The notes under the pieces were generated by a model that saw only the letters and a program-made list of their open reading frames with translations, was not told where the DNA came from and made no database searches. From positions 1 through 25,027 of IMG/VR virus record IMGVR_UViG_3300036808_000178: DNA of 25,027 bases, one strand, 5' to 3'. The position numbers and the translations under genes were made by a program. Positions 7,953 to 19,718 of the stretch are shown here, one piece after another. Position 1 is the first letter of the stretch. Every line of letters starts with the position of its first letter. This DNA comes from a virus.

Positions 7953-8282
7953 TTAAACCTGAAAACTACTCCCACACCCACAGCTTTTTGTGGCATTAGG
8001 ATTATTGAAAACAAAACCACGCTTAGAAATATCAGTGTAATAATCTAACGTAGTTCCTTCTAAATACAACGCGCTTTTATTATCTACAATAACATCTACA
8101 CCATGTTGATGATATAACGCATCCTTTTCCTCATCGTAGTCATTGCCTACAGTTAAGTTATATTGGAAACCGGAGCATCCACCACCCTCCACAGCAATCC
8201 TTAGATATTTTTCTTCGGTATCTTTAAGGTATTGCTTAGCCTCTGCTCCTGCGGCTTCCGTTAATTTAATTGTTGATGGCAT
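7953..8282 (-). CDS. A-type iron-sulfur cluster carrier (HesB/IscA/ErpA family)
   Basis: 109 codons, the standard length for this family. The three cluster-binding cysteines are present: Cys36 in EGGGCSGFQY and Cys101/Cys103 in SCGCGSSF at the C-terminus, with FNNPNA before them as in IscA and ErpA. These proteins hold [2Fe-2S] or [4Fe-4S] clusters and pass them to apo-enzymes in the cytoplasm. No isc/suf partners are in the window, so it would plug into host assembly machinery. The start is two bases after the metalloprotease stop. IscA, ErpA, SufA and phage homologues cannot be told apart here, so no symbol is given. A-type carriers have been reported in some large phages. Confidence 0.92.
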   Translation of the reverse strand: MPSTIKLTEAAGAEAKQYLKDTEEKYLRIAVEGGGCSGFQYNLTVGNDYDEEKDALYHQHGVDVIVDNKSALYLEGTTLDYYTDISKRGFVFNNPNATKSCGCGSSFQV

Positions 8283-8284
8283 TA

Positions 8285-8899
8285 TTATTTTCCGTATAGT
8301 TTTCTAATTCTTGAAATGTCGTCTTTTTGTGGCGTTACTGTGTTGGGATTATAGTAAGGATACATCAACGCCGATTTGTCTGCGGAATGCCTCAGACCTA
8401 AAAGGTGTCCTATTTCGTGAGCAGCCACGGCCCGCAAAACAAAACTATTGTTCTCTTTCTTTAGTGTCCACTTTTCGGCAACATCAAATTTTGACAGGAG
8501 AAGCCCACTAAACTTTTTGCTTCCGGGTAGTTCTGCCCAAGCTAAAACGTCTCCGGGTTCACCAAAGCCTTCTGATGGTTTATTTCCAACACTAAAAACA
8601 ATGTCGCAATCAAAAATATTATCAACCTGATTAAAAGTCATGCCACAAATGTCAGACCAAGATTTAAAAGCTAGCTTAAACTGTAAATCCCAGCTTGACA
8701 GGGCCAATTCTTCTATGTCTCTATTTAAAAAGAAATACTTTAAATGTTTTTTGTCCCATTTATTTGCATTTTTTCGTTGCAGATGTTCTACATTTCCACA
8801 TCTGAACGAGCAACCGCTCTCTGATAATTCCTCTTGCCCATAAGCCTCAAGACCGTAAAAACCAGACAAGCTGGTGTATAAGAATTGCCTACGTTGCAT
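8285..8899 (-). CDS. Matrixin-type zinc metalloprotease
   Basis: 204 codons. Residues 161-171 read HEIGHLLGLRH, the HExxHxxGxxH zinc motif of metzincins, and ALMYPYY (177-183) supplies the Met-turn. EPGDVLAWAELP (114-125) is typical of the matrixin strand before the active site. The N-terminus MQRRQFLYTSLSGFYGLEAY has an RR pair and a mild hydrophobic stretch, so a twin-arginine signal is possible but weak. The start is backed by AAAGGGG about seven bases upstream. It lies in one transcription direction between the DUF1501 gene and the iron-sulfur carrier. Likely acts on extracytoplasmic protein; the substrate is unknown. Confidence 0.85.
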   Translation of the reverse strand: MQRRQFLYTSLSGFYGLEAYGQEELSESGCSFRCGNVEHLQRKNANKWDKKHLKYFFLNRDIEELALSSWDLQFKLAFKSWSDICGMTFNQVDNIFDCDIVFSVGNKPSEGFGEPGDVLAWAELPGSKKFSGLLLSKFDVAEKWTLKKENNSFVLRAVAAHEIGHLLGLRHSADKSALMYPYYNPNTVTPQKDDISRIRKLYGK

Positions 8900-8963: not shown

Positions 8964-10217
8964 TTACAAAACCGATTCCGTATCTGTTTCTATAAAATAT
9001 CTAGGGCGACCAGACATGTCAAGTCTTTGTGTATGCTGGTCTATCCCAAAATGCTTAAGCAAGGTGGCAGTAACATTTTGTGGATTAATTGGATTTGTTT
9101 TTGGTTCTTCTGCATTGCTGGTAGACTCACCAATAAATCGACCAGTCGGAAAGTCTCCACCAGCCAGCATAAGCGGAGACAGCCTTGGCCAATGGTCACG
9201 GCCAGCATTACCATTTATTTTATATGTGCGGCCAAACTCTCCGGTTACTACTAGCAGGACATCTTTATTCATGCCTTTGGCATATATATCATTAATAAAT
9301 GCTGATAAAGCCTTGTCAATAGGTGGAACCTTGCCCTTGAGGGCTTGTGAAATGTTGCCATGCATGTCCCATCCACCATACTGAACGGTGACAAATTTTG
9401 TGCCAGCTTCTACAAGTCTACGAGCTAAAAGAAGCTGTTCCCCTATGCCCTTGCCATAGTTGGCAAACATTGCAGGGGGTTCCTTTTTAATGTCAAAAGC
9501 TTCTGCCACTTTACCTAAAAGCATGCTGTATGATTGGCTGCGAAGGTCTGACCATGCGTCAGCACCACTGTCAACGCCCTCTCTGAGCCTGTCCAAGCCA
9601 CTCAAAAGCTCCTGATTACCCAAGAACCTCTCTGGTGTGATTTTTAATTGGAGGTTCTTAACCCCCTGTCCGCTAGACTCATATGGCTTTGTCTGACTTC
9701 CGAGCCACGCGCCTTCATCAAAGCTAATCCCATTAACTCTGACATAGGTGGGCATGCCACTAATAGGATGATTAGAGCCATAGGCTGACGACACGATAGA
9801 ACCGTAAGAAGGGTGGTATGCAGGAGATTGCGGCGTGTTATCTGTACTGTTATGTCCAGTCATTACCCAGTGGGTTGCTGTGCGATGACTAGCATTGCCA
9901 TGCGCAAATGACCGAACCACAGATATCTTGTCACCTACGCCTGCCAGCCCAGTCCAGTCGCCCCCAATGAGATAATCACCATTGGTCATTATGCTGCCAT
10001 TCACGGCTCGAACATTATCTGGAGCGTCTGGCTTAGGGTCAAATGTTTCTACTTGAGTAGCACCGCCACCAAGCCACACCCAAACTACAGACTTGTTGTT
10101 GGGAATAAGGCAGGTCGCGTCATCTGCATAAAGGTCAGAAAGACCTATGGCAGAAAGCCCTGCTCCAATACTACCAATCCTCATCAAGTCTCTGCGATTA
10201 AAACGAAGGTCAAGCAT
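8964..10217 (-). CDS. DUF1501 family protein with Tat signal
   Basis: 417 codons, near the usual length for DUF1501 proteins. The N-terminus NRRDLMRIGSIGAGLSAIGL is a twin-arginine export signal, so the folded protein should be exported. Family features include VWVWLGGGATQVETFDPKPD (about 44-63), SVVRSF, HRTATHWVMTGH, QYGGWDMHGN and VVTGEFGRT with GRDHWP near the C-terminus. The family belongs to the alkaline-phosphatase/sulfatase superfamily; activity of most members is unproven. It is very common in Planctomycetota, often beside DUF1800 or DUF1553 genes that are absent here. The start has GGGGGAG nine bases upstream. Its presence in a phage-like region is unusual and suggests acquisition from a host. 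Confidence 0.9.
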   Translation of the reverse strand: MLDLRFNRRDLMRIGSIGAGLSAIGLSDLYADDATCLIPNNKSVVWVWLGGGATQVETFDPKPDAPDNVRAVNGSIMTNGDYLIGGDWTGLAGVGDKISVVRSFAHGNASHRTATHWVMTGHNSTDNTPQSPAYHPSYGSIVSSAYGSNHPISGMPTYVRVNGISFDEGAWLGSQTKPYESSGQGVKNLQLKITPERFLGNQELLSGLDRLREGVDSGADAWSDLRSQSYSMLLGKVAEAFDIKKEPPAMFANYGKGIGEQLLLARRLVEAGTKFVTVQYGGWDMHGNISQALKGKVPPIDKALSAFINDIYAKGMNKDVLLVVTGEFGRTYKINGNAGRDHWPRLSPLMLAGGDFPTGRFIGESTSNAEEPKTNPINPQNVTATLLKHFGIDQHTQRLDMSGRPRYFIETDTESVL

Positions 10218-10280: not shown

Positions 10281-10643
10281 TTATTTGCTAAATGCTGCTT
10301 GAAGAAGCTCTTCTGAGCTATCGAAGGTCGAGTTTGCGCAAAGTTCAGAAACTATCTTTTTGGCTTCTGTTTTTGTGTGACCTATCTTAATAAGGGCAGC
10401 TATCACCTCTTGCATAGTTTCATCACTTGTGGCGTGTTGCGACCCTGATATAGGAGTGGGCTTAGGAGTGTCTGATATTTTTTGTATATATGGCAACGTC
10501 ATTGGTTTTGACATTATTAATTCAAATTCACGCTTACTTTTTAGCTCTTTCCCATTTCTTATCAGGTGTATAGCACAAGACAGAATTACCAAAAGAACAG
10601 TCCCCGCCATAATCAGGGGAGATTCGTAGCCACTATTTTCCAC
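10281..10643 (-). CDS. Membrane-anchored protein with UBA/RuvA-III-like helical domain
   Basis: 120 codons with a GTG start at 10643, six bases after AGGGGAG. Residues 9-27 (PLIMAGTVLLVILSCAIHLI) form one membrane helix. The C-terminal 45 residues (TMQEVIAALIKIGHTKTEAK onward) look like a three-helix UBA or RuvA domain III fold: 'xxVIxALxxxGxxxxEAxxxVxxL'. The combination of membrane anchor plus small helical domain suggests a recruiter of a soluble partner. It follows rIIB by 11 bases and is probably the third gene of the rII operon. In T4, rII proteins are membrane-associated, so this could be a functional partner; that is inference from position. Confidence 0.6.
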   Translation of the reverse strand: MENSGYESPLIMAGTVLLVILSCAIHLIRNGKELKSKREFELIMSKPMTLPYIQKISDTPKPTPISGSQHATSDETMQEVIAALIKIGHTKTEAKKIVSELCANSTFDSSEELLQAAFSK

Positions 10644-10654
10644 AAGGACTCCCC

Positions 10655-13727: not shown

Positions 13728-14735
13728 TTATTTTTGTAAATGGTGCGTATTTATCCATTGTATTGTTTTAACATCAGACCGCATGAATAAACTATTAGTT
13801 CTAATTTGCCCAGCGGTTCTTTTTACGCCCTTGAATATTGTTCCATCCGTAATGCCTGTTGCCGCAAATATGCTTGGGCCACATACCAGCCTACCCATAG
13901 GCATTATGTCTCCTACTGGAACCCATTTTTCATCATTGGCAGAAAAGAATATGTCTTCTCTACCAGAAGCATTGCTTTCATATATTTGGGCTTCCATTCC
14001 CCCACCTAAACATTGTATGGCAGAAGCAGAAATAACTGCTTCGGGGGAGCCTCCTATACCATACACAAAATCAACATCGCTTGTCGGTAGGCAGCTAGCA
14101 AGAGCGCCAACTATGTCGCAATCTCTGATAAGCTTTACTCTTACTTTAAGGTCTCTAAGTTTTTGTATGACCTTAGAGTGTCGTGGTCTATCTAGAACGC
14201 ACACCATTAATTCTGGAATTAGCTTTCCAGTTGCTAAAGAGGCGAGTCTAAGATTTTCTTCTAGCGGGTTTCTTAAAGAAAGCTCAACCTTATCTTTAAT
14301 CTTCTTTCCGTATGCTATCCTGTTCATATAGTAATATCCAGTATAGAACATGGAAGATGGACAGCCTACAGATATGACTGACATGGCCTCTGGCCCAGAG
14401 GTAACGGTCTGAGTTGTTCCTTCTATCGGGTCAACAGAAATATCGAGCCATGTTGGTTCTCTGGTTCCATATCGAAGCCTGTATGTGGAACCGTTGGCCT
14501 CCCAAGTCTTTGCTTTTTTACCCACGGTTTCGCCTTTGAACAAGCCAAAGGACTCATCCTTTTCCCCCTCCCCCATAACAACTCTACCGGCAATCTCTAT
14601 CTCTGTGTTGAGCTTCTCCCGCATCGCTTCTGTGGCGGCTTTATCCGCAAGCTCTTTTTCTCCAGAGCCTATCCATTCTGATGCGGCAATGGCGGCAGCT
14701 TCTGTTGCTTCTACAATATCCGAGCTTATTTTCAT
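13728..14735 (-). CDS. glpX: Class II fructose-1,6-bisphosphatase (GlpX family)
   Basis: 335 codons, full length for GlpX. Family motifs are intact: TEAAAIAASEWIGSG (11-25), Asp31 in LADKAATEAM, GEGEKDES (55-62), DPIEGTT (102-108; metal and phosphate ligands) and GIGGSPEAVISASAIQCLGG (around 226-245). The enzyme removes the 1-phosphate of FBP to give fructose 6-phosphate in gluconeogenesis or the Calvin cycle; some homologues also take sedoheptulose bisphosphate. The ATG overlaps the TGA of the aldolase-like stub (ATGA), so translation is probably coupled to it. Phage-borne carbon genes usually shift flux to the pentose phosphate pathway, and supply of fructose 6-phosphate would fit; that is inference. 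Confidence 0.93.
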   Translation of the reverse strand: MKISSDIVEATEAAAIAASEWIGSGEKELADKAATEAMREKLNTEIEIAGRVVMGEGEKDESFGLFKGETVGKKAKTWEANGSTYRLRYGTREPTWLDISVDPIEGTTQTVTSGPEAMSVISVGCPSSMFYTGYYYMNRIAYGKKIKDKVELSLRNPLEENLRLASLATGKLIPELMVCVLDRPRHSKVIQKLRDLKVRVKLIRDCDIVGALASCLPTSDVDFVYGIGGSPEAVISASAIQCLGGGMEAQIYESNASGREDIFFSANDEKWVPVGDIMPMGRLVCGPSIFAATGITDGTIFKGVKRTAGQIRTNSLFMRSDVKTIQWINTHHLQK

Positions 14736-14829: not shown

Positions 14830-15036
14830 TTAGCTGCGTAGCGGCCAAAATACATGACCGCACAGAACCCCTATTATAAAAGGCACAATAGGATGCTGCC
14901 TAGAAATTGTATATATAGAAAAACTAAGTGTTGCGTTTAAGTCCTTAGCATAAAACATTACTATGCTATCCCAGACAAAGACAACACAAAACGTAAGTAT
15001 AATTAAAAACTTGGTTACGTTTAAAAAATCAATCAT
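14830..15036 (-). CDS. Two-helix membrane protein
   Basis: 68 codons. Residues 7-27 (VTKFLIILTFCVVFVWDSIV) and 49-66 (HPIVPFIIGVLCGHVFWPL) are membrane helices, joined by a polar loop LNATLSFSIYTISRQ. Small proteins with the pattern 'ATxSxxIxxxSxxxPIxPFxxGVLxGHxFW' occur in many phages and plasmids with no known role. The ATG overlaps the guaC stop (ATGA), so it is translated from the guaC transcript. Confidence 0.7.
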   Translation of the reverse strand: MIDFLNVTKFLIILTFCVVFVWDSIVMFYAKDLNATLSFSIYTISRQHPIVPFIIGVLCGHVFWPLRS

Positions 15037-16130
15037 TTTACCCTGTTCACTTTTATGAATGTTGTTCTTTTGCTAAAATCCTTCAGTGTCTTTGCTCCGA
15101 CATAAGCACAAGCACTTCTTATTCCTCCTAAAATTTGATGTACGGTTTCCTTCACTGGCCCCTTATAAGGAACCCTTTTAGCTTCCCCTTCTGTTGCTCT
15201 ATATTCTGCGACCCCGCCACTATGTTTATTCATAGCGGCTGAGCTTGACATTCCATAAAACTTTAGCGACTTCTTTTTTTGTCGTAATTTGCCGTCTTGG
15301 TCAACTTCAATCTTCCCTGCGACGAATGGCTTGTCTTTTGGTTCTAACCATTGAAGGTCATTTTCCCATTCCCACTCCCCTTCACATTCATCGGTTCCAG
15401 CTAGCATGCCACCTAACATGACAAAATCTGAGCCTGCCCCAAACGCTTTAACTACATCCCCCGGAGTTTTGCACCCCCCATCTGCACAAATATGAGCGTT
15501 AAGACCATGTGCCGCATCTGCACATTCTATTACGGCAGAAAGCTGTGGGTATCCTACGCCAGCTATTAATCTAGTAGTACACACACTTCCCGGCCCAATA
15601 CCTATTTTAACTATATCTGCCCCACCTTGCAAGATTAATTCTTGAACTATTTCTGGAGAGCATACATTTCCAACCATAAGTATAGCTTTAGGGAATTGCG
15701 CTCTTATTTCGGCAACCCTATTTACAAAGTAGTCTGTGTACCCATTAGCTACATCTATACATATATTATTAATGGAAACCTTGCTTGATATCTGATTTAA
15801 TTTTTCTCTATCTTTCTTTCCTGTTCCCAGCGTGTAAAAAAAATAGTGGGAGCCAGCTCTTTGTTTTATGAACTCGCACAGGTTATCTATTGAATAATGT
15901 TTATGGAGACATGTTCCCATGTTATGGTTAGCAAGACTGTCTGCCATAGCAAAAGTGCCAGTAGTATCCATGTTTGCGGCGAGTATGGGTACTCCTTGCC
16001 ACTCTTGATTAGAGTTTCTTGACTTAAATGTTCTGATAATGTCCACTTCTTTTCTGCTCGCCGTTGCAGACCTTTGTGGTCTAATTAGAACATCTTGAAA
16101 ATCTAATTTTATGTCTTCTATAATTCTCAT
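15033..16130 (-). CDS. guaC: GMP reductase
   Basis: 365 codons with no CBS domains, as expected for GMP reductase and unlike typical IMP dehydrogenase. The start KLDFQDVLIRPQRS, the catalytic loop GIGPGSVCTTRLIAGVGYPQ (about 177-196), SAVIECADAAHG, ADGGCKTPGDVVKAFGAGSD, FVMLGGMLAGTDE, FYGMSSSAAM and GGVAEYRATEGE match E. coli GuaC block by block, and the end KRTTFIKV is also conserved. It converts GMP and NADPH to IMP and ammonia in the cytoplasm, returning guanine nucleotides to the IMP pool from which AMP is made. About 15 extra residues lie around residues 235-265 (ECEGEWEWENDLQWLEPKD). Its ATG overlaps the stop of the 54-codon gene upstream, which carries the strong ribosome binding site. 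Confidence 0.95.
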   Translation of the reverse strand: MRIIEDIKLDFQDVLIRPQRSATASRKEVDIIRTFKSRNSNQEWQGVPILAANMDTTGTFAMADSLANHNMGTCLHKHYSIDNLCEFIKQRAGSHYFFYTLGTGKKDREKLNQISSKVSINNICIDVANGYTDYFVNRVAEIRAQFPKAILMVGNVCSPEIVQELILQGGADIVKIGIGPGSVCTTRLIAGVGYPQLSAVIECADAAHGLNAHICADGGCKTPGDVVKAFGAGSDFVMLGGMLAGTDECEGEWEWENDLQWLEPKDKPFVAGKIEVDQDGKLRQKKKSLKFYGMSSSAAMNKHSGGVAEYRATEGEAKRVPYKGPVKETVHQILGGIRSACAYVGAKTLKDFSKRTTFIKVNRVK

Positions 16131-16292: not shown

Positions 16293-17096
16293 TTATCTCC
16301 TTACCTCACTATTTTTCTTCCATACTCCGGTCATTATAGAAGGGTCTACGTCAAGCTCAATAGACCTATTAATTAAGGCGTTTAAATCCTTGGGAAAGCA
16401 TGTTCCACCAAAGCCCCTCTTTCCGTCTGGGCCGGGAACGCTCCAATGGGAGTCTCCAAGCCTCTTGTCAATGGTCGCAAGCTGAACAACTTTGTTATAA
16501 GGAATATCAAGCTTTTGGCATATCTGACTTAACTCATTGGCTAATCCCACTTTTACGGCAAGATGTACATTAGTGGTATACTTCACCATTTCAGCCACGG
16601 TCGAAGATGTTTCCCATATAGGAATCTTAGGATATGCTTTCTGATAACATTGACTTACGCTATCTAAAATATCATAGCTGCCACCAATAATTATTCTGTC
16701 CTGATTTTTGAAGTCTTCAACTGCATTAGCCTCAGTTAAAAATTCAGGATTAAAACAAATACTACAGTGTACATATTTTTCAGATAATGCCTGCGTGGTT
16801 CCCGGCACAACCGTCGATTTAATAGCAATAGTTGTCGCTACATCTTGTAGCTTTGCTTCTTCGTTGATTAATTCTACAACGCTCTCTACTATTGAAGTGT
16901 CACAACTACCACTTGGAAGCATCGGGCTTGGAACACAAATAAAGATAGGCCCATCGACCTTTTGCACTACCTCTTTTATACTGTCGCAATTGCTTTCCCC
17001 GTTAATGTCGTAACAAAGAACATCAAAAGCGTGGAGCATGCCCTCTTTAACGGCTGTGCCAACTACTCCACATCCTATTAGCCCTATCGTTTTCAC
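16293..17096 (-). CDS. Short UDP-glucose/GDP-mannose dehydrogenase family protein
   Basis: 267 codons with a GTG start at 17096. The NAD-binding domain (IGLIGCGVVGTAV, 4-16), STVVPGTT (94-101), FNPEFLTEANA (115-125), EMVKYTTN with NELSQIC in the central dimer helix, and the active-site GFGGTCFPKD (228-237, Cys233 the nucleophile) are present. Known members oxidise UDP-glucose or similar NDP-sugars twice to the uronic acid. The usual C-terminal domain (about 120 residues completing the NDP-sugar site) is missing: the frame stops soon after the dimerisation helix, and the stop is followed at once by the next gene's ribosome binding site. So it is either a natural short form or a truncation. It may feed the glycosyltransferases. 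Confidence 0.85.
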   Translation of the reverse strand: MKTIGLIGCGVVGTAVKEGMLHAFDVLCYDINGESNCDSIKEVVQKVDGPIFICVPSPMLPSGSCDTSIVESVVELINEEAKLQDVATTIAIKSTVVPGTTQALSEKYVHCSICFNPEFLTEANAVEDFKNQDRIIIGGSYDILDSVSQCYQKAYPKIPIWETSSTVAEMVKYTTNVHLAVKVGLANELSQICQKLDIPYNKVVQLATIDKRLGDSHWSVPGPDGKRGFGGTCFPKDLNALINRSIELDVDPSIMTGVWKKNSEVRR

Positions 17097-17974: not shown

Positions 17975-18047
17975 CACCCCCGGCAAGAGTCGAACTTGCA
18001 ACCTACAGATTAGAAGTCTGTTGCTCTATCCATTGAGCTACAGGGGC
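17975..18047 (-). tRNA. tRNA-Arg (anticodon UCU)
   Basis: 73 bases with a full cloverleaf: acceptor GCCCCTG/CGGGGGT, D-stem GCTC/GAGC, anticodon stem ACAGA/TCTGT with loop CTTCTAA (anticodon at 18012-18014), T-stem GCAAG/CTTGC with TTCGACT. The discriminator is G, as many Arg tRNAs allow. CCA is not encoded. It reads AGA/AGG, a codon set favoured in A/T-rich phage genes. Confidence 0.95.
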
Positions 18048-18292
18048 TAGAGGCAATCTATGACCTCATCTGTATCTATAATATGTTCGTTTATCGTGTC
18101 AATTACAAAAGGATTCCTATCACATACGAACCCCCTTTCGCTAACCACAAACTTATCCCCTATCGCAATACCAGAAAGCTCTTTTCGGTCTTTGGTTAAC
18201 AAGACCCCCATAGCTTTTATGCAGGCTTCAAAGGGCTTGTTTGCGACTAACACAACTTTTAGGTCATTGCTTTCAACGTAATATTTAGGCAC
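18047..18292 (-). CDS. Small protein, paralogue of 18950-19165
   Basis: 81 codons with GTG start at 18292 and GGAG eight bases upstream. It begins MPKYYVESNDLKVVLVANKP, then FEACIKAMGVLL. The gene at 18950-19165 begins MPKFYVKSGELEVVLVAKNP, then FDACCRAINSI, so the two are clear paralogues, with the C-terminal halves more different (both keep an 'RGFxxxxxxxFxxxT' segment). The pattern is two strands, a helix, then an acidic end; it may be a small binding domain. The stop overlaps the first base of tRNA-Arg. Function unknown. Confidence 0.7.
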   Translation of the reverse strand: MPKYYVESNDLKVVLVANKPFEACIKAMGVLLTKDRKELSGIAIGDKFVVSERGFVCDRNPFVIDTINEHIIDTDEVIDCL

Positions 18293-18521: not shown

Positions 18522-18523
18522 AA

Positions 18524-18608
18524 TAGTGCTGGAGGGACTCGAACCCTCACGCCCCTTACAGGCACAGGATTTTAAGTCCTGAGTGTCTGCCAATTCCACC
18601 ACAGCACT
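18524..18608 (-). tRNA. tRNA-Leu (anticodon UAA)
   Basis: 85 bases, class II with a long variable arm (TGCCTGTAAGGGGCG). Acceptor AGTGCTG/CAGCACT is a perfect 7-bp stem with discriminator A, as leucine tRNAs need. Anticodon stem CAGGA/TCCTG with loop CTTAAAA (anticodon at 18572-18574); T-stem GAGGG/CCCTC with TTCGAGT. CCA is not encoded. It reads UUA/UUG. Confidence 0.95.
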
Positions 18609-18612
18609 AAAG

Positions 18613-18949
18613 TGGAGGCGGCGGGAATCGAACCCGCGTCCTGTCTTGCTTCACTAATAACATCTACATTGTTAGTCTGTTGTTATCACACAACAAACAA
18701 AGCTATCCAAATTATCGGAGTCAGGTTAATTATAACCATTCGTTACATTTGATTCAAGTGTAACATCTATATCCGAATTATCGGAGTCAACACAATTGGG
18801 TAAAAAGGTCTGTGTAACCCCCGCAGCTAAGCTGCAATTGCTAAATTAGATTCGGCAATTAAAAATTTGGTCAACTTTTATAGTGGCCTGTTGACCAGCC
18901 ACTCAATGCAGTTACTACTTTCACAAACAGTCGATACCATTTCGCCCCC
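18613..18949 (-). ncRNA. ssrA: tmRNA (transfer-messenger RNA), one-piece
   Basis: 337 bases, slightly shorter than E. coli tmRNA (363). The ends pair as a 7-bp acceptor, GGGGGCG with CGCCTCC, holding a G3-U70 wobble, the alanine identity element, followed by discriminator A. The T-arm GCGGG-TTCGATT-CCCGC is perfect and the 5' end ATGGTATCGACTG resembles the reduced D-arm of tmRNAs. The proposed tag frame is GCC GAA TCT AAT TTA GCA ATT GCA GCT TAG (18827-18856), encoding AESNLAIAA after the tRNA-borne Ala. The upstream TAATT before GCC fits the TAGTC seen before the E. coli resume codon. A GCAGC/GCTGC hairpin spans the stop, as in other tmRNAs. Two similar hairpin modules follow. It works with SmpB to free stalled ribosomes; no smpB is seen here, so host SmpB is presumably used. 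The exact resume codon is inferred. Confidence 0.93.
18704..18789 (-). repeat. Duplicated 20-base hairpin element inside the tmRNA
   Basis: Two copies, at 18704-18723 and 18770-18789, differ at one base (19/20). On the minus strand each reads TGACTCCGATAATTyGGATA and can fold TCCGA-TAAT-TCGGA (the second pair set is weakened by the C/T change in one copy). They sit where tmRNA pseudoknots lie, so they are probably duplicated pseudoknot parts. A further inverted repeat GTTACA/TGTAAC lies between them. Confidence 0.8.
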
Positions 18950-19165
18950 TTATTCTTCCCATTCCCATCCCGCAGCTTCAACTACAGTTTCAACATCAAA
19001 GGAAAGCTCTGGCGAGCTTTCAAAGCCTCTTCTGTTCACATCAAATTCATGGTCAACAGTAATTCTTTTTGTAATACTATTTATAGCTCTACAGCAGGCA
19101 TCAAAAGGGTTTTTAGCTACCAGAACAACTTCTAACTCACCGGATTTTACATAAAACTTAGGCAT
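18950..19165 (-). CDS. Small protein, paralogue of 18047-18292
   Basis: 71 codons from ATG 19165; an in-frame GTG five codons earlier is possible but the paralogue also starts at MPK. The sequence MPKFYVKSGELEVVLVAKNP then FDACCRAINSITKR is similar throughout its first 33 residues to MPKYYVESNDLKVVLVANKP. The C-terminus is acidic with GWEWEE. The stop (18950-18952) abuts the tmRNA 5' end. The two paralogues flank the tmRNA and tRNA-Leu, suggesting duplication around that block. Function unknown. Confidence 0.7.
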   Translation of the reverse strand: MPKFYVKSGELEVVLVAKNPFDACCRAINSITKRITVDHEFDVNRRGFESSPELSFDVETVVEAAGWEWEE

Positions 19166-19169
19166 TATT

Positions 19170-19718
19170 TTATACACCACCCGTTACTAGATTACACATT
19201 TTAATAAAATGCTCTTTTTCAAAACTGTGTTTCATTAGATTTATATGTTTATGACAAAACTCTATGTTTCCCAGCACATACCCCTTTGAGTTATCAATCC
19301 TGTCCAGAGATGCTGTTCTTTCTTGTCGCCACGCCCGCACACCAAAGGTTAAATCTTCGCCAGTATATGCACACTTGCCTTTTTGTTTTTCCCATTGGTT
19401 TCTCACATCCTCTATCGTAATAGAAAATTCTTTATCCCGCCTACCAGCCCCAATCTTGAAAGAATTGAAAAATCCCAGCGGTATATCTCCACAACCTTGC
19501 CATGCATGCGAACCTTTTCCTGTGGTGCAACGTTTGCATCCACAGCTTTTAGTGTCGCCAGCGTTTAATCTCCCCGTCGGAGATTCATATTTATTTCCAC
19601 AATCACATTGAAGAAGCCACCGATAGTGGCCATGTTTATCACGGATTTTCATGTCGGCAATAATAACACCCATCCCAAATCTTTGACCTATATCAAATAT
19701 TTTTCTTTTTCTAGGCAT
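19170..19718 (-). CDS. HNH endonuclease with N-terminal zinc-binding domain
   Basis: 182 codons from ATG 19718 with GGAGAA nine bases upstream; a longer frame would run into tRNA-Ile and is rejected. Residues 38-64 hold CDCGN and CGCKRC, four or more cysteines that can bind zinc, a domain common in phage HNH proteins. The nuclease part is CAYTGEDL (116-123), TASLDRIDNSKGYVLGN (135-151) and NIEFCHKHINLMK (151-163), the HNH pattern of free-standing homing endonucleases. It lies between tRNA-Ile and the small-protein/tmRNA block, a typical position for a mobile endonuclease gene. There is no sign of an intron in the neighbours. Confidence 0.87.
   Translation of the reverse strand: MPRKRKIFDIGQRFGMGVIIADMKIRDKHGHYRWLLQCDCGNKYESPTGRLNAGDTKSCGCKRCTTGKGSHAWQGCGDIPLGFFNSFKIGAGRRDKEFSITIEDVRNQWEKQKGKCAYTGEDLTFGVRAWRQERTASLDRIDNSKGYVLGNIEFCHKHINLMKHSFEKEHFIKMCNLVTGGV

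What the first reader, a model, noticed from the sequence alone, without database searches (positions are those of the whole stretch)
18613..18949. Complete tmRNA in a phage-like region with predicted tag ending in AIAA
The sequence shows a full tRNA-like end with a G3-U70 pair, a tag frame and pseudoknot-like hairpins. The tag (A)AESNLAIAA ends in IAA, whereas most bacterial tags end in LAA (ALAA), the part read by ClpXP and SspB systems. A phage tmRNA with a modified degron could rescue ribosomes on cleaved mRNA while changing the fate of tagged proteins. tmRNA genes in phages are rare; the altered tag is the new point.
Basis: partly seen in the sequence, partly recalled or inferred. Interest (0 to 1): 0.8.

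Follow-up and report, generated by a model that had tools for sequence, protein, structure and literature searches.

The report
Planctomycete-type tmRNA in marine phage
A marine phage, probably of Planctomycetota, carries its own complete ribosome-rescue RNA whose degradation tag copies the hosts' tag except for one conservative Leu-to-Ile change that several related phages share; it is a real but fairly ordinary phage tmRNA, useful mainly as a newly traced family.

Summary
Window 18613-18949 (minus strand) is a complete one-piece tmRNA (Rfam RF00023, 125.7 bits, gathering 47; ARAGORN agrees) with tag AESNLAIAA, in a phage fragment. The frame, the G3-U70-type pair and pseudoknots PK1 and PK2 hold up. 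New here: (1) It belongs to a family of phage tmRNAs that resemble those of Planctomycetota; shared DUF1501 genes also point to planctomycete hosts. (2) The tag is host-like: one planctomycete genome encodes AESNLALAA, one residue away. (3) AIAA is not the host standard: 0 of 241 genomes of the nearest family and 0 of 392 drawn from the phylum, while a control pattern for A[L/M/F/I]AA finds 137 of 241. (4) AIAA is shared by several related phages (AEPSFAIAA, AEHSFAIAA), with ATT, ATC and ATA codons, but sister phages have ALAA or AMAA. The residue toggles between Ile, Leu and Met, and the terminal Ala-Ala that matters most to ClpXP is kept. So an altered protein fate is not supported, nor excluded. 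Phage tmRNAs are uncommon but well known (about 2% of phage genomes). No SmpB was found; host SmpB is probably used. Most likely function: ordinary trans-translation kept running during infection.

The parts
18613..18949 (-). complete one-piece tmRNA (ssrA), first G to discriminator A; CCA not encoded
18827..18856 (-). tag reading frame GCC GAA TCT AAT TTA GCA ATT GCA GCT TAG = AESNLAIAA*, gene positions 94-123
   Evidence: frame shared with ten homologous phage tmRNAs
18869..18903 (-). pseudoknot PK1 (gene positions 47-81): stem AGUGGC/GCCACU and stem GGUCAAC/GUUGACC
   Evidence: covariation (helices 3 and 4: 100% and 93.5% of cells paired, 6 pairs with changes on both sides); near-identical PK1 in planctomycete L233
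18790..18820 (-). pseudoknot PK2 (gene positions 130-160): GGGU/ACCC and ACACA/UGUGU
   Evidence: helices 5 and 6 (79.5% and 69.1% of cells paired; all five pairs of helix 6 change on both sides)
18943..18949 (-). acceptor stem 5' strand GGGGGCG, pairs with 18614-18620; third pair is G-U (G3-U70 equivalent)
18614..18637 (-). T arm (GCGGG UUCGAUU CCCGC, 18621-18637) and 3' acceptor strand (18614-18620)
   Evidence: T stem invariant in 11 phage homologues (helix 7)
18523..18609 (-). tRNA-Leu(UAA), separated by three bases from the tmRNA discriminator; probably in the same transcript
18950..19180 (-). 76-aa ORF of unknown function; its stop codon abuts the tmRNA 5' end; similar in sequence to the 81-aa ORF at 18047-18292
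8964..10217 (-). DUF1501 protein (PF07394), a shared gene of this phage lineage; its tree places it next to planctomycete copies

Best explanation
A phage of a lineage that probably infects Planctomycetota carries its own inherited one-piece tmRNA. During infection it would be cut out of a phage transcript by host tRNA-processing enzymes, given CCA and alanine by host enzymes, and bound by host SmpB and EF-Tu. On ribosomes stalled on mRNA without a stop codon it would take over, add (A)AESNLAIAA, and free the ribosome; the tagged fragment would then be degraded by host Clp protease much as with the host's own ALAA/AMAA tags. Shown here: gene, tag, structure, phage context, homologous phage family, host-like tag, absence of AIAA in sampled host genomes. 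Inferred: host, expression, charging, tagging and degradation. The Leu-to-Ile change is most likely a tolerated or mildly tuned conservative variant of the hydrophobic position three from the end.
For: tmRNA. Host type: 5'-end pattern hits are mostly Planctomycetota; the closest tmRNAs are planctomycete; the tags have the same 9-residue form (AENNLALAA, AEDNLALAA, AESNLALAA); neither the phage nor L233/L236 encodes CCA. Phage DUF1501 is sister to copies of planctomycete genomes G004 and G005. Phage family with DUF1501, RIIA/RIIB and a tmRNA. Conservation of the tag: Ile written ATT, ATC or ATA, with Leu or Met in sisters. C-terminal Ala-Ala kept; its importance: PMC7652416. No SmpB in 15 contigs of the lineage.
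Against: No expression, charging or tagging data. The contigs are fragments, so a phage SmpB elsewhere is not excluded. The host is inferred, not shown: no prophage, spacer or infection evidence. The phage tmRNA is on a long branch and host tmRNAs are at most about 46% identical over the full length. Why a phage needs a second tmRNA is not shown.
Confidence: 0.75

Rival explanations
1. The Ile is an adaptive change of the degron: phage-tagged proteins are degraded at another rate, or by another protease, than host-tagged ones, so that tagged viral fragments or host proteins meet a different fate. Some related phages encode a ClpP-like peptidase that could take part.
For: AIAA is absent from sampled planctomycete genomes (with control) but found in several related phages, with synonymous codon changes. 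Backbone protein trees separate the two AIAA groups, so the change either arose twice or was exchanged. ClpP-like proteins in three related contigs, G635 (tag AEPSFAIAA), G637 and G642.
Against: Related phages carry ALAA or AMAA in the same tag context (AEHSFAIAA/AEHSFAMAA). ClpP occurs with an ALAA tag (G637) and was not found in four longer contigs (G632, G634, G641, G643) or in the window phage. The terminal Ala-Ala, the main ClpX determinant, is unchanged (PMC7652416).
Confidence: 0.14
2. The gene is a passenger: a host tmRNA captured by transduction or left from integration at ssrA, without a function for the phage.
For: tmRNA genes are common integration sites and phage fragments of ssrA are known (PMC9004378, PMC11915505). 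Phage tRNAs sit beside it.
Against: The gene is complete and flanked by phage genes. Homologues in at least ten related contigs form a group separated from host tmRNAs by a long branch with support 97-100. Helices are kept by compensatory changes and the tag by synonymous changes. No integrase among the ORFs scanned.
Confidence: 0.06
3. The phage tmRNA acts mainly as a competitor or decoy for SmpB, taking it from host tmRNA, rather than as a working tagger.
For: No phage SmpB found. A tmRNA fragment of phage DS6A inhibits endogenous tmRNA in E. coli (cited in PMC11915505 and PMC4131195).
Against: DS6A carries little more than the tRNA-like domain; here the tag frame, resume-codon context and PK1 are conserved, which a decoy would not need.
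Confidence: 0.04

Closest known systems
Chromosomal tmRNA of Planctomycetota (family of G004; e.g. G067/L236, tag AESNLALAA; L233 and L245, AENNLALAA)
   Same: one-piece form, GGGGGCG acceptor, near-identical PK1 with compensatory changes, TA at positions -5 and -4 before the resume codon, nine-residue tag beginning AE, no encoded CCA
   Different: phage copy is AT-richer and about 20 bases shorter, its 3' pseudoknot region does not align well, and the tag has Ile where hosts have Leu or Met
Phage-encoded one-piece tmRNAs (mycobacteriophages Bxz1, Catera, Wildcat; Bacillus phage G; Stenotrophomonas phage Marzo)
   Same: tmRNA gene in a large phage, often with tRNA genes (PMC4131195, PMC8928761)
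   Different: other host phyla (Actinomycetota, Bacillota, Gammaproteobacteria). PMC9004378 reports that only 2.5% of one-piece phage tmRNAs in its set were marine
Two-piece tmRNA of marine phage Melnitz and pelagimyophages (PMC9004378)
   Same: marine phage with its own tmRNA, proposed to keep the hijacked translation machinery working or to tag proteins
   Different: permuted two-piece form of alphaproteobacterial type, behind a glutamine riboswitch; no cis-regulatory RNA reached the Rfam threshold in this window

Membership tests
tmRNA (Rfam RF00023) | full-length covariance-model match over the gathering score | tested here: met
   125.7 bits against 47, model 1-374
tmRNA (Rfam RF00023) | alanine-type acceptor with G3-U70 pair | tested here: met
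   third acceptor pair is G-U; seven standard pairs
tmRNA (Rfam RF00023) | open tag frame starting at an Ala resume codon with conserved upstream TA, ending in a hydrophobic Ala-Ala tail | tested here: met
   TTTAATT GCC...GCA GCT TAG
tmRNA (Rfam RF00023) | pseudoknot PK1 before the tag, and PK2 | tested here: met
   covariation (PK1 strong, PK2 weaker)
tmRNA (Rfam RF00023) | pseudoknots PK3 and PK4 | tested here: inconclusive
   hairpins present in the window but the region diverges between homologues; covariation not tested there
tmRNA (Rfam RF00023) | alanylation, SmpB binding and tagging in vivo | not testable with these tools
   needs biochemistry or mass spectrometry
Phage-encoded tmRNA | lies in phage DNA, not in an attached host segment | tested here: met
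   RIIA/RIIB, sigma-factor and HNH genes around it; homologues at least ten times in viral contigs
Phage-encoded tmRNA | partner SmpB encoded by the phage (not a requirement of the kind) | tested here: not met
   no PF01668 in 15 lineage contigs, all possibly fragments
tmRNA with functionally altered degron | tag tail not used by the host clade | tested here: met
   AIAA 0/241 and 0/392, control pattern 137/241; host clade itself is inferred
tmRNA with functionally altered degron | changed recognition by ClpXP or another protease | not testable with these tools
   terminal Ala-Ala kept; Leu, Ile and Met interchange in sister phages argues against
ssrA remnant of prophage integration | 3' fragment next to an integrase or attachment site | tested here: not met
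   gene complete; no integrase among the ORFs scanned

The most novel reading that the evidence does not exclude
A lineage of phages of Planctomycetota has kept, by selection or exchange, an Ile at the third position from the end of its tmRNA tag so that proteins tagged during infection are handled differently from host-tagged ones (slower or rerouted Clp degradation, in some phages perhaps by a phage ClpP-like peptidase).
Probability: 0.12. Interest if true: 0.75.

Novelty: new member of a known kind. Interest (0 to 1): 0.4.

Why it matters
It adds a planctomycete-type family of phage tmRNAs, traced across at least a dozen viral contigs, to the known phage examples, which come from other host phyla. 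Because the tags of phage and likely host differ at one conservative residue, the pair would make a clean test of whether phages tune the fate of tagged proteins or only borrow ribosome rescue. The tag and tmRNA type also give a host-phylum hint for uncultivated viruses.

Tried and rejected
Exact-tag scan of 84,980 species genomes found nothing, but the pattern required TAA before the resume codon, which many planctomycetes lack (they have TAG, TAC or TAT), so I repeated the test with TANNN and a positive control in the family and phylum. Two viral scans had mistyped patterns and must be ignored. An alignment of whole loci instead of tmRNAs was useless. A bootstrap run timed out. A second tmRNA in planctomycete genome G005 (L308, tag ANKQFALAA) looked like a possible phage gene but is closer to host tmRNAs. 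Single origin of AIAA: the tmRNA tree supports it at 95 with the tag columns but only 52 (0.907 by FastTree) without them, and the DUF1501 and deoxyribosyltransferase-like protein trees put the window phage with ALAA phages; I leave open two origins or exchange. The integration-remnant idea was rejected (complete gene, conserved in sister phages).

Full report
What was checked. The window is an IMG/VR virus record of 25,027 bases. Rfam and ARAGORN both find a complete one-piece tmRNA on the minus strand at 18949-18612/18610, with tag AESNLAIAA*. The stop codon of a 76-aa ORF abuts its 5' end, and tRNA-Leu(UAA) follows after a gap of three bases. Two other contigs, IMGVR_UViG_3300027838_000022 and IMGVR_UViG_3300031646_000196, hold the same phage (about 99.9% identical) and the identical tmRNA.

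Structure. The acceptor has seven standard pairs with G3-U. In an alignment of 11 homologous phage tmRNAs, the tested helices (helix 2, PK1, PK2, T stem) pair in 90.7% of cells against 81.6% in shuffles. 17 pairs change on both sides (0 of 500 shuffles), and sliding the partner by 1-3 columns drops pairing to 32-46%. PK1 is close to that of the planctomycete tmRNA L233: GGUCAAC/GUUGACC against GGUCAGC/GCUGACU. The 3' pseudoknot region is too divergent to judge.

Host type. A pattern for the 5' end hit 71 stretches in species genomes, mostly Planctomycetota, with nine-residue tags such as AENNLALAA and AEDNLALAA. By local similarity nearly all of the closest tmRNAs are planctomycete; by global alignment they reach 46% identity. 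The DUF1501 protein of the phage matches planctomycete genomes G004 and G005 at 44-45%; these two carry tag AENNLALAA and about 190 DUF1501 matches each. In a tree the phage proteins are sister to those copies (support 0.985 and 0.997). I infer a planctomycete host; no direct link was available.

The tag against the host clade. tmRNAs from genomes of the family of G004 gave tags ending mostly in -LAA or -MAA. One, in G067 (L236), is AESNLALAA: the phage tag with Leu for Ile. A pattern for nine-residue tags ending A[L/M/F/I]AA matched 137 of 241 family genomes with almost no background; the same pattern restricted to Ile matched 0 of 241 and 0 of 392 genomes drawn across the phylum. The pattern misses tags of other length or composition, so a rare AIAA host is possible.

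The phage family. A pattern for the 3' part found homologous tmRNAs in about a dozen further viral contigs. Tags: AEPSFAIAA in five; AEKQFALAA in two; AEKQYALAA, AEKEILALAA and VEEETLALAA in one each; VEENFALAA as a lower-confidence call in L309. A tag-based scan added AEHSFAIAA (two) and AEHSFAMAA (one), all with recognisable tmRNA bodies. Most contigs share DUF1501 and a glycosyltransferase, and four have RIIA at 36-45% identity with the window, so this is a phage lineage, not scattered captures. Host tmRNAs are separated from the phage ones with support 97-100.

What the Ile means. It is written ATT, ATC and ATA in different phages, so the amino acid is kept. But sisters have Leu or Met there, and protein trees place the window phage with ALAA phages and the AEPSFAIAA phages with other ALAA phages. 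The tmRNA tree favours a single AIAA group only weakly once the tag is removed (52 and 0.907). Interchange of Ile, Leu and Met is what a tolerant hydrophobic position shows. [quoted passage not shown] So the altered-fate reading is possible but has no positive evidence. Three related contigs encode a ClpP-like peptidase, with both AIAA and ALAA tags, so it does not track the Ile.

Mechanism. Most likely host RNase P and other enzymes process the RNA from a phage transcript, host AlaRS charges it, host SmpB delivers it, and it performs ordinary trans-translation (established pathway of the tmRNA family; not tested for this gene). No SmpB was found in 15 contigs of the lineage. The benefit, keeping ribosomes free while mRNA is broken during infection, is inference; PMC9004378 proposes a similar role for phage Melnitz.

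Known or new. tmRNAs in phages are established: listed in PMC4131195, and 402 of 18,146 phage genomes in PMC9004378. In the papers searched I found no report of planctomycete-phage tmRNAs; the library does not hold most subscription papers. I file this as a new member of a known kind, with a lineage-specific tag variant.

Noticed in passing
L341:4730-5395 (G642); L339:8588-9256 (G635); G637:10265-10771: Three related phage contigs encode a ClpP-like peptidase (PF00574) with ClpP-like AASM and MIHE motifs, next to nucleotide-metabolism genes rather than capsid genes where seen; G635 also has an AIAA tmRNA.
   Followed up: partly
window 8964-10217; G632, G633, G634, G640, G642: DUF1501 (PF07394) proteins with a twin-arginine-like N-terminus (RRDLM) in this phage lineage, up to four copies close together, related to a family that is hugely expanded in some planctomycete genomes.
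   Followed up: partly
window 10433-10650: The same phage in G001 has a different stretch here (about 218 bases against 302) while both flanks are 99.9% identical: a variable spot between DUF1501 and RIIB.
   Followed up: no
window 18706-18722 and 18771-18787: The tmRNA holds two near-identical hairpin modules (TGACTCCGATAATTCGGATA and TGACTCCGATAATTTGGATA); sister phages carry the module in the first place, the second or both, as if pseudoknot modules were copied or swapped.
   Followed up: no
window 18047-18292 and 18950-19180: Two similar small ORFs (MPKYYVESNDLKVVLVANKPFEAC and MPKFYVKSGELEVVLVAKNPFDAC) lie on either side of the tmRNA/tRNA-Leu segment; unknown function, no Pfam or PHROG match.
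   Followed up: partly
window 8285-8899, 7953-8282, 13728-14735, 15033-16130, 16293-17096: Unusual cargo for a phage: matrixin-like metalloprotease, Fe-S biosynthesis protein, GlpX fructose-1,6-bisphosphatase, IMPDH/GMP reductase-type and UDP-sugar dehydrogenase genes.
   Followed up: no
L308 (G005:C75): A planctomycete assembly with two tmRNA genes, tags AENNLALAA and ANKQFALAA; the second is on a small contig and could be contamination or a mobile element.
   Followed up: partly
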